Below the pieces are notes generated by a model. That model was given only the letters and a program-made list of their open reading frames with translations. It had not been told where the DNA came from and searched no databases. Positions 7,875 through 19,590 of a stretch of 64,000 nucleotides of DNA are shown one piece after another (position 1 is the first letter of the stretch; the number at the start of each line of letters is the position of its first letter). Where the stretch lies: NCBI GenBank assembly GCA_022827345.1, contig JAJDTB010000050.1:1-64000 (forward strand). Direction: 5' to 3'. A program made the position numbers and the translations under genes. The DNA comes from Gemmatimonadota bacterium (GTDB lineage Bacteria > Gemmatimonadota > Gemmatimonadetes > Longimicrobiales > Gaopeijiaceae).

Positions 7875-8381
7875 ATGACCTTCATCGCCCGCCGCCGCCA
7901 CCTCTTCGTCCTGGGCATCGCCGCCGTTGCGGTCGTGATGGCCGCACCCCAATTCGCCTCCGCGCAACAGCGTCCCGGGGGCGGGTTCGCCAACAACCCG
8001 GGAGTGCGGTTGTGGAATACGCTCGATCAGCGGTTCGACGGCTTCGCGGAGCAACTCTCGCTGACGGAGGCCCAGACGCTCGGCATCTCCCTGCTAGTCG
8101 AGAATTTCCGCGAGGAGAACAAGGGCGCCCTCGGCCGCTACGAGACGATGATGGCCGAAATGCGGAACCGGGCGCGCGGTGCGAGATCCGGAGGGGCGCG
8201 GGCCGGTCAGCGGCCGCCGAACCGTCAGGGGATGCGGGGTGCGGGTGGAGCATTGCGGGAGATCCTGCAGGAACTCGGTCCCGCCTTCGAGGCGCTGCAC
8301 ACCGACGTCACGGCAATGCTGGAGGACGACCAGGCGGATCGGATGCGCGAACTGCTGGCGCGGCAGCGTCCGGGGGGTTAG
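7875..8381 (+). CDS. small secreted Spy/CpxP-like helical protein
   Basis: Signal peptide ending ...QFASAQ; LSLTEAQ..., repeated LLxxxQ helices; start MTFIARRR after GGGAGATCCCA. Confidence 0.45.
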   Translation: MTFIARRRHLFVLGIAAVAVVMAAPQFASAQQRPGGGFANNPGVRLWNTLDQRFDGFAEQLSLTEAQTLGISLLVENFREENKGALGRYETMMAEMRNRARGARSGGARAGQRPPNRQGMRGAGGALREILQELGPAFEALHTDVTAMLEDDQADRMRELLARQRPGG

Positions 8382-14679: not shown

Positions 14680-15204
14680 ATGGCGCGGCAATCACTCCCA
14701 CTGGCGCACACACTCCTCGTCCTTGTCGCAGCTGGCCTGCCGCTCGCCGGGTGCGCTTCCGGCGGTGTGTCCGAAGCCCCCGCAGATCCGGCCGGGTCTG
14801 CCGCTCCGGCCCCCGAAGACGCGCCCGCCGCACCCGCCGCCGAAACACCGGACCCCCCTCCTGATGCTACACCTGAAACTCCTCCAGGTGGCATCTTCAC
14901 CAACGCGCAGGCGCGGCGGGGGCGCACCGCCTTCGACGAGGTCTGCTCCGAGTGCCACACCACGAGCGAGTTCCGCGGCCGCACCTTTCAGCGCACCTGG
15001 GGACGGCGCACGGTCTACTCGTTCTTCCGCACCATCCGCTCCACCATGCCCGACGACAATCCGGGGGGACTCGAAGAGCAGATCTACCTCGATGTCGTCT
15101 CGTACATTCTGAGCATGAACGGACACGACGGCGGGGCGGCCGAGCTGGGTGCGGATTCGCCCATGCGCGAGGTTCGCATCGCGCCGCCGGAATCGTCGCG
15201 TTGA
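14680..15204 (+). CDS. c-type cytochrome lipoprotein
   Basis: Lipobox LAGCASGG, Pro/Ala linker, heme motif CSECH, distal Met region YILSMNGHDGG. Confidence 0.82.
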   Translation: MARQSLPLAHTLLVLVAAGLPLAGCASGGVSEAPADPAGSAAPAPEDAPAAPAAETPDPPPDATPETPPGGIFTNAQARRGRTAFDEVCSECHTTSEFRGRTFQRTWGRRTVYSFFRTIRSTMPDDNPGGLEEQIYLDVVSYILSMNGHDGGAAELGADSPMREVRIAPPESSR

Positions 15205-16589
15205 GCCGGGTGGACGGCGGAGGGGGTCGGGAGCCCCTTGCGGATGCGTCTGCGGCGCGGGTCGCTGGGAAGCGGAGAGCGGTAGACCGCCGCCGTTTCA
15301 TGAAGGCGGCCGCGGCGGGAGCGGGCGCCATCCTCGCGGGAGCCCGACCCCAGGCGGCCGGTGCGGATGCGCCATCCGCCAGCCCCGGCCCGGCTGCGAC
15401 CTCCGCCCCCTGGGTGCGCACCCGCCAGACCCCCGATATCGCCGTCGTCGGTGCCGGTGCCTTCGGTGCCTGGACCGCGCTCCACCTCCAGCAGTCCGGC
15501 GCGCAGGTTACCCTCGTCGACCAGTACGGCCCTGCCAATTCCCGCGCGACCTCGGGCGGTGAAACCCGGGGCGTCCGCACCGGATATGGCGGCCATCCCC
15601 ACGAGCTCCTGTGGATGAGTTGGGCCAAGCGCGCCATCGAGAAGTGGAACGCATGGGACGAACAGTGGCAGGACATGCTCCTGCCGCGCGTCTTCTTCAC
15701 CACCTCGGACCTGATCATGCGGGACGAGTGGACGGACTTCATGGAGGACACGCGCAGGAATTGGGACGAATTGGGCATCCGCCACGAGGTCATCGACGCG
15801 GACGAGGTCCGGCGGCGCTGGCCCGTCATCGACGTGACGGACATCACGGTCGCGCTCCGGGAAGAGGACGCGGGCGTTGTGCGGGCCCGCCGCGCAATTG
15901 AGTCCGTCGCGCGGGTGTTCGAGCACGAAGGCGGCCAGGTGCGGATCGCGCGGGCCGGGATGGGCGGCGCGACCAACCGCAGGCTCAACGCGCTTGGCCT
16001 TCAGCCAGGCGACGATCTCTCCGCCGGGACCTATGTCTTCGCCCTTGGACCCTGGTTCCCCAAAGCCTTCCCGGAACTGATGGGCGACCGGGTGCGCATC
16101 CCCATCGGGCATGTCGTCTACTTTCGTACCCCGCCCGGGGACAACAGCTACAGCTATCCCAACCTGCCCAGCTACAACTTCCCCGGCGTGACCGGCTGGC
16201 CGGCGCTCGGCTCCGACAACCGCGGCTTCCGCGTCAGGACCGGCGGACGGGGCGGGGAGAACGATCCCGACACCAGCCGCCGCTGGCTCGAACCGGATGA
16301 GCTGGAGCGGCCGCGCGCCTTCGTGGCCCAGCGTTTCCCCGGGCTGGCGAACGCGCCGATCAGCGAGACGCGCGCCTGCCACTACGAGATCTCGACCACC
16401 CGCAATTTCTTCTTCGACCACCACCCGGACTACGACAACGTCTGGTTCGCCGGGGGAGGATCGGCCGAGGGGTTCAAGTTCGGGCCCGTGATCGGCGAGT
16501 ACCTGGCCGGCAGGGTACTCGGGACCGAGACCGACGCGGAGCTGATCGAGGCGTTCCGCCTGTGGGTGGAGGAGCCCGAGGGGCGCTGA
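15201..16589 (+). CDS. Tat-exported FAD-dependent oxidoreductase (DAO / sarcosine oxidase-like)
   Basis: RRRFMKAAAAGAGAILAGA Tat-like signal; DIAVVGAGAFGAWTALHLQQSGAQVTLVDQ Rossmann motif; TTG start overlapping the previous stop is my best guess. Confidence 0.8.
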   Translation: MSRVDGGGGREPLADASAARVAGKRRAVDRRRFMKAAAAGAGAILAGARPQAAGADAPSASPGPAATSAPWVRTRQTPDIAVVGAGAFGAWTALHLQQSGAQVTLVDQYGPANSRATSGGETRGVRTGYGGHPHELLWMSWAKRAIEKWNAWDEQWQDMLLPRVFFTTSDLIMRDEWTDFMEDTRRNWDELGIRHEVIDADEVRRRWPVIDVTDITVALREEDAGVVRARRAIESVARVFEHEGGQVRIARAGMGGATNRRLNALGLQPGDDLSAGTYVFALGPWFPKAFPELMGDRVRIPIGHVVYFRTPPGDNSYSYPNLPSYNFPGVTGWPALGSDNRGFRVRTGGRGGENDPDTSRRWLEPDELERPRAFVAQRFPGLANAPISETRACHYEISTTRNFFFDHHPDYDNVWFAGGGSAEGFKFGPVIGEYLAGRVLGTETDAELIEAFRLWVEEPEGR

Positions 16590-16657
16590 TAGGGGCACGA
16601 AGATGCTGACAGGGGGTCGGCGGGTGTCCCAAGGGATATGTGTGGACGGATCGTTTC

Positions 16658-16690
16658 GTGAAAATCCGCAATTGACTTGAGGATTTTCAC
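16658..16690. promoter_or_regulatory. inverted repeat GTGAAAATCC-N13-GGATTTTCAC overlapping a putative promoter of the ATPase gene
   Basis: Perfect 10-bp arms; TTGACT (16672-16677), 16 bp, TACTGT (16694-16699), ATG at 16705. Confidence 0.6.
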
Positions 16691-16704
16691 GTTTACTGTT
16701 CTCC

Positions 16705-17916
16705 ATGCTCATCGACCGACCAACACCCATCGAGCGGATTCACCAGGCGCTTTCGGCCCATCCGGTCGCAGCCCTGACCGGACCGCGGCAGTGCGGCAAG
16801 ACCGCGCTGGCCCGGGAAATCGCCGCCCGCGCGGAGCAAGCCACATACTTCGATCTCGAAGAGCCTTCGCACCGCCGCCGCCTGGCCACCCCCGAACAGG
16901 CACTCGGCCGACTCCAGGGGCTTGTCGTCATTGACGGAGTGCAGCGGTCGTCCATGCTCCTGCGGACGGTCCGGATTCTGGTGGACTGGACCGGCAACGC
17001 GGCGCGCTTCCTCCTGGTCGGTAGCGCGGCACACTCGTGGAACAAGCGTGTGTCGGAGTATCTGGCGGGCCGCGTCGGACTGGTGGATCTGGGCGGTCTC
17101 GACCTGGGCGAGGTGCCGCCGGCCGATTGGCGAAGGCTGTGGCTGCGCGGCGGTTTCCCGCGGTCCTACCTCGCGAATCTCGACGGCTCGGTGACCTGGA
17201 GGCGGGACTACATCCGCACCTTCCTGGAGCGGGATCTGCCGCAGCTCGGGATCACCATCCCCGCGGAACGGCTGCGGCGCTTCTGGACCATGATCGCCCA
17301 CTCTCACGGTCAGGTCTCGAACGCCGCGGAACTCGCCCGCTCCCTCGGAACCAGCGCAGGGACGGCCCGAAACTACCTGGACCTTTTCGTCGGGACGCGC
17401 ATGGTTCGGCTGTTGCCGCCGTGGTTTGAGAACATCCGGAAGCGCCAGGTGAAGTCGCCCCGGGTTTATGTCCGTGACACCGGCATCCTGCACACCCTCC
17501 TCGGCCTGGCCGGCGAGGAGGACGTCGCGGGCCATCCCAAGGTCGGGGCGTCATTCGAGGGGTTCGCGATCGCACAGCTCCTGGCGGCGTTCGACTCGCG
17601 GGACGCCCGTTTCTGGAGAACACACGGAGGCGTGGAGCTGGCGCTGCTCGTCCGTCACCGGGGAGCGCGTTTCGGCTTCGAGTGCCAGTTCGCGGATGCA
17701 CCCGTCGCAACCCGCCGGATGCGGACGGCGCTTCGCGATCTGGCGCTCGATCACATGTGGATCGTGTATCCGGGGGAGGAGGTCTATCGTGTGGACGACC
17801 GGATATCGGTGCTCCCCGTCTCGCATGTTCAGGACAAGGCCCGGGAACTGATGCGGCGCCTGATGGAGGACGGGCGGCCATGGAATGACGGCATTCCGTT
17901 TCATCGGTACATTTGA
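16705..17916 (+). CDS. AAA (AAA_14) ATPase with DUF4143 C-terminal domain
   Basis: Walker A GPRQCGKTALAR; YFDLEEPSHRRRL; LWLRGGFPRSYLA; WRRDYIRTFLERDLPQLGI; FEGFAIAQLLA; FWRTHGGVELALLV. Confidence 0.88.
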   Translation: MLIDRPTPIERIHQALSAHPVAALTGPRQCGKTALAREIAARAEQATYFDLEEPSHRRRLATPEQALGRLQGLVVIDGVQRSSMLLRTVRILVDWTGNAARFLLVGSAAHSWNKRVSEYLAGRVGLVDLGGLDLGEVPPADWRRLWLRGGFPRSYLANLDGSVTWRRDYIRTFLERDLPQLGITIPAERLRRFWTMIAHSHGQVSNAAELARSLGTSAGTARNYLDLFVGTRMVRLLPPWFENIRKRQVKSPRVYVRDTGILHTLLGLAGEEDVAGHPKVGASFEGFAIAQLLAAFDSRDARFWRTHGGVELALLVRHRGARFGFECQFADAPVATRRMRTALRDLALDHMWIVYPGEEVYRVDDRISVLPVSHVQDKARELMRRLMEDGRPWNDGIPFHRYI

Positions 17917-17982: not shown

Positions 17983-19590
17983 ATGCGCATGAAACTCCGG
18001 ACCCTGCTGCTCATTCTCGGCCTTGGCGCGGCTGGCCCGTTTGCGGGAAGCGTCCCGCTTGCGGCACAGGCCGGCACCACCACCCAGGCTCGGGTCGACC
18101 CCGCCGCGGACGCCCTGCCCGCTGCCGTCTTCCTCCCCGATGCCCGCGACCCCTTCGAGGGTTTCGACGCCTTCATGGCGCGGATCATGGAAGACTGGCA
18201 GATCCCCGGGGTCGCCGTCGGCGTGATCCACGACGGCGAGATCGTGCTGGCCAGCGGATTCGGCCTCCGCGACGTCGAGAACCGGCTTCCGGTCACCGAG
18301 CACACGACCATGGCGATCGGCTCCAACAGCAAATCCTTCACCGTGACGATGATGGCGATGCTCGTGGACGATGGCAGGCTCGACTGGGACGAGCCGGTGC
18401 GCGATTTCCTCCCCGACTTCCGCCTCTACGACGAATTCGCGACCGCCGAGATGACGCCGCGCGACCTCGTCACCCACCAGTCCGGGCTGCCGCGCCACGA
18501 CAACGTCTGGTACGGACGCGCCGCGACCCGCGAGGAGATCTTCGCGAAGCTGCGCTACCTGAAGCCGAACGCGTCGTTCCGGAGCCGCTACCAGTACCAG
18601 AACCTCATGTTCATGACGGCCGGCTTCCTCACCGAACGCCTGACCGGGAAGGACTGGAGCGACCTGATCGACGACCGCATCTTCACCCCCCTGGGCATGG
18701 ACCGGTCCAACACCTCGGTGGACGACTCGCCCGGCTCCGGGGACTTCGCCTACCCGTACATCCTGCGCGACGGCGTGCTGCACAAGGTCCCCTTCCGCAA
18801 CCTCGACGAGGTCGGCCCCGCCGGGTCGATCAACTCGAACGTGGTCGAGATGCTGGCCTACATCCAGACGCACATCGAAGGCGGTGCCTACAACGGCACG
18901 CGCCTCATCTCGGAGGAGAGTTCGGCGCAGATGCAGACGCCCCAGTTCGCGATGCCGGGCGAATCCGAGCACCCCGAGGTGGGACCGGTCAGCTACGGGC
19001 TGGGCCTGCGCGTGGGCACCTACCGCGGCCGCAAGATGGTGCAGCACGGGGGCGGCATCGACGGCTTCATCTCGTCGATGTCGTGGCTCCCGCGCGAGAA
19101 GATGGGCGTGATGGTCCTCACCAACCGCTCCGGCGGCATGAACCCCGCGCCGATCATGGTCGCCTACAACGTGTACGACCGGCTGCTCGGGCTGCCGGAA
19201 ATCGACTGGAACGCGCGCAACCTCGAGGAGCGGGATGAGCAGGAGGCGCGCGCCGCGGAGTCCGCGGCAGAGATGCTCGCCAAGCGGGTGGAAGGAACCA
19301 GCCCCGGCCACGCTCTGGAGGCGTACGCGGGACGGTATCATCATCCGGCGTACGGAGACATGGTCGTGGCAGCCGCCGGCAATGGCCTCACCATCTCTTA
19401 CGACAACGACTTCGTGCTGGAGCTCGCGCACTTCCACTACGAGGTCTTCCGGATCACGTCGCTGCCCAACATGGTGCCGGCGACGGGACTGGTCACCTTC
19501 ACCACCGACTCGGACGGCGCCGTCAGCCAGGTCGCAATCCCCTTCGAGCCCAACGGGGCGGACATCGTGTTCGATAGGGTGGAGGGGTGA
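17983..19590 (+). CDS. serine hydrolase, class C beta-lactamase family
   Basis: SNSK, YQN, QHGGG motifs; signal peptide; C-terminal beta domain. Confidence 0.88.
   Translation: MRMKLRTLLLILGLGAAGPFAGSVPLAAQAGTTTQARVDPAADALPAAVFLPDARDPFEGFDAFMARIMEDWQIPGVAVGVIHDGEIVLASGFGLRDVENRLPVTEHTTMAIGSNSKSFTVTMMAMLVDDGRLDWDEPVRDFLPDFRLYDEFATAEMTPRDLVTHQSGLPRHDNVWYGRAATREEIFAKLRYLKPNASFRSRYQYQNLMFMTAGFLTERLTGKDWSDLIDDRIFTPLGMDRSNTSVDDSPGSGDFAYPYILRDGVLHKVPFRNLDEVGPAGSINSNVVEMLAYIQTHIEGGAYNGTRLISEESSAQMQTPQFAMPGESEHPEVGPVSYGLGLRVGTYRGRKMVQHGGGIDGFISSMSWLPREKMGVMVLTNRSGGMNPAPIMVAYNVYDRLLGLPEIDWNARNLEERDEQEARAAESAAEMLAKRVEGTSPGHALEAYAGRYHHPAYGDMVVAAAGNGLTISYDNDFVLELAHFHYEVFRITSLPNMVPATGLVTFTTDSDGAVSQVAIPFEPNGADIVFDRVEG

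What the first reader, a model, noticed from the sequence alone, without database searches (positions are those of the whole stretch)
16705..17916. DUF4143 ATPase with apparently degenerate catalytic motifs in both domains
Sequence shows VVIDGVQ (GAC GGA) where DUF4143-type ATPases normally have VIDEVQ/VIDEIQ, so the Walker B catalytic Glu is Gly. The C-terminal nuclease-like signature, normally ELDLL...FExK, reads ELALLV...FECQ, losing the Asp and Lys. Walker A (GPRQCGKTALAR) is intact. This predicts nucleotide binding without normal hydrolysis or cleavage, i.e. a sensor or regulatory role.
Basis: partly seen in the sequence, partly recalled or inferred. Interest (0 to 1): 0.7.

Follow-up and report, generated by a model that had tools for sequence, protein, structure and literature searches.

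The report
Decaying copy of candidate defence ATPase
This gene is one of about 19 copies of a common but unproven bacterial defence-type ATPase-nuclease in this genome, and it has lost key residues of both active sites because the whole protein is losing constraint, more likely a dying copy than a new sensor.

Summary
ORF 16705-17916 (+, 403 aa) is AAA_14 + DUF4143 (PADLOC PDC-S01) with an intact Walker A but G78 for the Walker B Glu, A313 for the nuclease Asp and Q328 for the nuclease Lys. In 204 aligned relatives these positions are E 202, D 200 and K 195. The 11 closest relatives (63-74% identical over full length) all keep them.

The sensor/regulator reading is not supported. The query breaks 31 of 202 columns invariant in those 11 relatives (each of them breaks 0-8), spread over all three domains. 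Its branch has dN/dS 0.23 against 0.07 (2dlnL 26), while neighbouring genes stay at 0.04-0.10. Its -10 box is weak. The nearest genome (94-95% identical flanks) lacks the gene at this site, and sister genomes show deletions or relics of the same gene. Best reading: a copy in early decay. Against this, the frame is open and omega=1 over the whole branch is rejected.

In passing: these genes carry a promoter-spanning palindrome (CCTTGAAAATCC-N13-GGATTTTCAAGG) across phyla, and it often survives as a scar when the gene is lost. That points to autoregulation or self-recognition and is more interesting than the original finding.

The parts
16705..17916 (+). AAA_14-DUF4143 (PDC-S01-type) ORF, 403 aa, with degenerate catalytic motifs
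16780..16803 (+). Walker A G26PRQCGKT33, intact (following T34 is A)
16936..16938 (+). codon 78 GGA (Gly) in place of the Walker B Glu
17263..17415 (+). helical / winged-helix-like segment, residues 187-237, in the AlphaFold2 model
   Evidence: weak MarR-type match 207-255 (E 0.034)
17572..17574 (+). codon 290 Ala, Glu in all 11 close relatives
17641..17643 (+). codon 313 GCG (Ala) in place of the PD-(D/E)xK Asp
17686..17688 (+). codon 328 CAG (Gln) in place of the PD-(D/E)xK Lys
17851..17913 (+). C-terminal tail (residues 383-403), not homologous to relatives' C-termini, shared with the flank of the gene-less G009 site, low model confidence
16657..16691 (.). 35-nt inverted repeat CGTGAAAATCCGCAA-TTGAC-TTGAGGATTTTCACG (15-nt arms, one mismatch) around the -35 region
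16672..16677 (+). -35 TTGACT at the palindrome centre
16694..16699 (+). weak -10 TACTGT (3/6, spacer 16), ends 5 nt before the ATG; the positional relatives in G019, G004 and G002 have 4/6 with spacer 17
16590..17852 (.). segment absent from the corresponding site of the nearest genome G009 (L249 10260-10270)
14952..16589 (+). left neighbour: FAD-dependent oxidoreductase (DAO)
17983..19590 (+). right neighbour: beta-lactamase-family serine hydrolase + DUF3471

Best explanation
The gene is a copy of the AAA_14-DUF4143 ATPase/PD-(D/E)xK family (PDC-S01) in a Palauibacter-like Gemmatimonadota genome that has recently come under relaxed selection and is in early decay. Its encoded protein probably still folds and may bind nucleotide, but is predicted to be unable to couple ATP hydrolysis to nuclease action. 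Shown here: the residue losses, the excess of changes at conserved positions over the whole protein, the raised dN/dS on this branch only, absence of the gene at this site in the closest relative, and deletions or relics of the same gene in others. Inferred: loss of activity, recent onset, and that deletion is the likely end. The intact ancestor most likely worked as a nucleotide-switched nuclease, plausibly in defence, that controls its own promoter through the palindrome (inference; validation is pending for most candidates of this kind according to PMC12988326).
For: 31/202 columns invariant in 11 close relatives are broken (others 0-8), and 8/91 in 23 relatives (others 0-2). Losses spread over all domains. 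Codon model: omega 0.234 on this branch against 0.070, 2dlnL 26.3, P 3e-7; two control branches not raised. Flanking genes own-G009 omega 0.04-0.10. Relative rate: own is closer to G002 by neighbouring genes (DAO 84% against 76-78% to G019, G004, G008), but its DUF4143 is 73% to G002 while G002-G019 are 83%. G009, with 94-95% identical flanks, lacks window 16590-17852. G013, G015 and G016 keep only the palindrome, and G001 keeps the palindrome plus gene fragments. A truncated relic of a closely related copy sits at G000:C26:135758-135972 (86% to window 16611-16825) and in G009:C14. Weak -10 box.
Against: The frame is open over 403 codons and GC3 is unchanged (0.814). Omega = 1 for the whole branch is rejected (2dlnL 22.2). 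Walker A, D77, E285, E311 and E326 are kept. The AlphaFold2 model is confident (pLDDT 93.9), though its alignment favours that. The palindrome arms are well kept. Absence of stops is uninformative: only 1.6-2.5 are expected for the inferred relaxed period.
Confidence: 0.72

Rival explanations
1. Pseudoenzyme: the protein keeps nucleotide and DNA binding and acts as a sensor, repressor or dominant partner of its active paralogues. For example, it could bind the palindrome without cutting.
For: Open frame, intact Walker A, intact fold prediction; omega = 1 rejected; palindrome arms kept; about 18 other DUF4143 loci in the genome could be partners.
Against: Private to one genome; constraint lost throughout the protein rather than at active sites only; gene absent in the nearest relative; weakened promoter.
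Confidence: 0.17
2. Active enzyme with shifted catalytic residues: other acidic residues (D77, E311, E326) carry out the chemistry, so the motif loss is only apparent.
For: D77, E285, E311 and E326 are kept. Walker B Gly also occurs in one otherwise intact paralogue, L011.
Against: No relative among 204 shows this combination. L011's Gly is private to this genome too; G009 and G020 orthologues have Glu. No compensating change is evident.
Confidence: 0.07
3. Assembly or strain-mixture artefact of a metagenome-assembled genome.
For: Related records are metagenome-assembled genomes; two paralogues in this genome carry private Walker B E-to-G changes.
Against: 31 changed invariant residues in an open frame with normal GC3 cannot be read errors. 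Flanks continue collinearly with relatives.
Confidence: 0.03

Closest known systems
PDC-S01 (PADLOC phage defence candidate; AAA_14 + DUF4143, ATPase fused to PD-(D/E)xK)
   Same: Domain order, length and fold; PADLOC model PDLC04790 matches residues 10-376 at 3e-73. PMC12988326 describes PDC-S01 as an ATPase fused to a PD-(D/E)xK domain and as the fourth most common defence across prokaryotes, with validation pending for most PDCs.
   Different: Walker B Glu and the nuclease Asp and Lys are lost here.
Positional relatives in G002, G008, G019 and G004 (same gene neighbourhood, 71-74% identical)
   Same: Same subfamily, same palindrome promoter, next to DAO and/or the beta-lactamase-family gene.
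   Different: All catalytic residues intact and omega low. In G019/G004 the gene lies between bla and the Plug gene, not between DAO and bla.
PABY2304 Walker-type ATPase of Pyrococcus abyssi (PDB 2qen; STAND-type AAA ATPase)
   Same: Best PDB fold match, E 1.2e-07, TM 0.47 by query length.
   Different: 13% identity; no evidence here of the same function.

Membership tests
AAA_14-DUF4143 / PDC-S01 | AAA_14 and DUF4143 domains in one protein | tested here: met
   Pfam over both cut-offs; PADLOC PDC-S01
AAA_14-DUF4143 / PDC-S01 | Walker A GxxxxGK[TS] | tested here: met
   G26PRQCGKT33
AAA_14-DUF4143 / PDC-S01 | Walker B hhhhDE | tested here: not met
   D77-G78; E in 202 of 204 relatives
AAA_14-DUF4143 / PDC-S01 | PD-(D/E)xK residues D and ExK | tested here: not met
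   A313 and E326-C-Q328; D in 200, K in 195 of 204. By descent it is a member; as an active enzyme of this kind it fails.
AAA_14-DUF4143 / PDC-S01 | anti-phage activity | not testable with these tools
   no experiment available; validation pending for most PDCs (PMC12988326)
Conserved pseudoenzyme | same degenerate residues kept across species | tested here: not met
   only in this genome among 204 relatives; nearest genome lacks the gene at this site
Conserved pseudoenzyme | rest of protein under normal purifying selection | tested here: not met
   omega 0.23 against 0.07; 31/202 invariant columns broken
Pseudogene | disrupted reading frame | tested here: not met
   403 codons open; hence 'early decay', not pseudogene
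Pseudogene | relaxed purifying selection | tested here: met
   but omega = 1 over the whole branch rejected

The most novel reading that the evidence does not exclude
AAA_14-DUF4143 (PDC-S01) genes travel as a unit with a dedicated, subfamily-specific palindrome that spans the promoter, with a near-leaderless start. The protein recognises this palindrome as operator or self-mark, and gene loss tends to leave the palindrome behind because one deletion end lies just beyond it. In this setting the degenerate copy could be a binding-only regulator of palindromes left by lost copies in the same genome.
Probability: 0.3. Interest if true: 0.68.

Novelty: new member of a known kind. Interest (0 to 1): 0.36.

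Why it matters
Motif loss in an isolated ORF is often read as a new regulatory role; here comparative data show that general loss of constraint explains it better. The useful by-product is for PDC-S01, described as one of the most common but unvalidated defence candidates: its genes carry a shared palindromic promoter from Gemmatimonadota to Pseudomonadota, Verrucomicrobiota, Chloroflexota and others, and leave palindromic scars when lost. That gives a concrete DNA ligand with which to test the family's biochemistry.

Tried and rejected
Sequence search of the PDB with the query found nothing useful; the profile gave only generic AAA matches and a weak MarR-type match. NCBIfam: no family. A spaced palindrome pattern in the window was mis-spaced and found nothing. 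First locus extraction ignored strand and was redone. Absence of stop codons as evidence of function was dropped: only 1.6-2.5 are expected. Considered and dropped: that the Gly at Walker B is a conserved variant of a sub-lineage; the only other case (L011, same genome) has Glu in its 97% and 93% identical orthologues. Considered: that the gene inserts next to pre-existing palindromes; gene fragments in G001 and presence in both own and G002 favour loss for those cases, but insertion is not excluded elsewhere. Literature: DUF4143, COG1373 and AAA_14 gave no functional study.

Full report
WHAT IS THERE. ORF 16705-17916 (+) encodes a 403-residue protein with AAA_14 (20-136) and DUF4143 (175-327) domains. 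It matches PADLOC's PDC-S01 models, best E 3e-73. PDC-S01 is described as an ATPase fused to a PD-(D/E)xK domain and as the fourth most common defence across prokaryotes, with experimental validation pending for most such candidates (PMC12988326). The genome has 19 DUF4143 loci. Relatives of the query with organism names include Candidatus Palauibacter and other Gemmatimonadota metagenome-assembled genomes, so the window is from a Palauibacter-like genus (inference).

OBSERVATION. Walker A is intact, but position 78 is Gly, 313 Ala and 328 Gln. In an alignment of 204 members, E78 is present in 202, D313 in 200 and K328 in 195. All 11 closest relatives (63-74% identical over full length; 64-75% over matched segments) are canonical. 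No other member combines losses in both domains in this way.

DECAY OR PSEUDOENZYME. Three tests separate the two. (1) Breadth: the query breaks 31 of 202 columns that are invariant in the 11 relatives, and 8 of 91 invariant in 23; each relative breaks 0-8 and 0-2. The breaks lie in the AAA domain (13/71), the linker and winged-helix part (8/71) and the nuclease part (10/60). Catalytic positions are not significantly preferred (P = 0.11). (2) Rate: a codon model (GY94, F3x4, nine sequences) gives omega 0.234 on the query branch and 0.070 elsewhere, 2dlnL 26.3; the branches to G002 and G008 are not raised; omega = 1 over the whole branch is rejected, 2dlnL 22.2. The value would fit roughly the last fifth of the branch being neutral (inference). 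Neighbouring genes between own genome and G009 have omega 0.04-0.10. (3) Distribution: in G009, whose flanks are 94-95% identical, window 16590-17852 is missing between DAO and the beta-lactamase-family gene. All three favour decay. The open frame and the rejection of omega = 1 keep a pseudoenzyme possible.

HISTORY OF THE LOCUS. G002 has the gene at the same place; G008 has it beside DAO; G019 and G004 have it between the beta-lactamase-family gene and the Plug gene. G013 and G015 lack the gene at the DAO/bla site but keep the palindrome. At the bla/Plug site G016 keeps only the palindrome, and G001 keeps the palindrome with short gene fragments. In the own genome, contig C26 holds a 215-bp relic, 86% identical to window 16611-16825 including the promoter, and G009 has the same relic. 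Own contig C32 has a lone palindrome where G009 has an intact 66% identical relative. Loss of this gene is therefore frequent in the genus.

PALINDROME. A 35-nt inverted repeat (16657-16691) surrounds the -35 TTGACT; the -10 ends 5 nt before the ATG in the query and in the G002, G019, G004 and G021 relatives, which implies a leaderless or near-leaderless mRNA (inference for the transcript). The query's -10 is TACTGT, 3/6; G021's relative has TATAAT. Over 199 upstream regions, 46.7% have an inverted repeat of score 9 or more against 0.8% of dinucleotide-preserving shuffles (score 14 or more: 9.0% against 0.0%). Many sequences are related, so these are not independent. The same core, CCTTGAAAATC...GATTTTCAAGG, appears in relatives from records named Pseudomonadales, Deltaproteobacteria, Opitutales, Spirochaetia and Roseiflexus/Chloroflexi. 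Other subfamilies have their own versions (TTGAAATATGA, TTGCAATATCGG). An operator for the protein's own winged helix is the simplest reading (inference). The scars at sites found by synteny or by G009 comparison (G013/G015, G016, G001, own C32) all begin a few bases beyond the right arm, whereas G009 lost the palindrome as well; the number is too small for a claim.

STRUCTURE. AlphaFold2 with 61 window and locus sequences gives pLDDT 93.9 and pTM 0.92; residues 396-403 are disordered. Best PDB match by fold is the STAND-type ATPase 2qen. The last 21 residues are not homologous to relatives' C-termini and continue into DNA shared with the gene-less G009 site.

VERDICT. The most useful lead is the palindrome unit of PDC-S01 genes.

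Noticed in passing
16657-16691 and upstream of relatives (e.g. L164, L174, L175, L185, L205, L026): DUF4143 genes in several phyla share a palindrome (ATAATCCTTGAAAATCC-N13-GGATTTTCAAGGATTAT and variants) that spans -35 and -10 and ends a few bases before the start codon.
   Followed up: partly
L250, L251, L261, L262, L316: Gene-less sites that keep the palindrome, one with gene fragments: probable scars of lost DUF4143 genes; the missing segment begins just after the right arm.
   Followed up: partly
L314 (G000:C8:29403), L315 (G000:C47:94273): Lone palindromes with near-perfect arms but a changed -35 centre; at the C47 site G009 carries a distant (33%) DUF4143 gene in the same interval.
   Followed up: partly
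L278 / G000:C26:135758-135972: Truncated relic of a closely related copy, preceded by what looks like the 3' end of another copy (RRLMEER, stop); shared with G009:C14.
   Followed up: partly
L011 (G000:C75): Second DUF4143 paralogue in this genome with a private Walker B Glu-to-Gly change; the rest is intact, and G009 and G020 orthologues have Glu.
   Followed up: yes
L016 and L059 (ORF at reverse position 8056): Subfamily with the nuclease Lys replaced (V/M) and ExK reading DVV/DIM in two genomes, pairwise omega 0.07: a better candidate for a conserved nuclease-dead member. The L016 ORF also lacks Walker A.
   Followed up: partly
L119 (G015:C189) and L121 (G019:C394): 97% identical pair with K32T, E285K, E311G and K328T: another catalytically degenerate DUF4143 lineage, shared by two genomes (pairwise omega 0.26).
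   Followed up: partly
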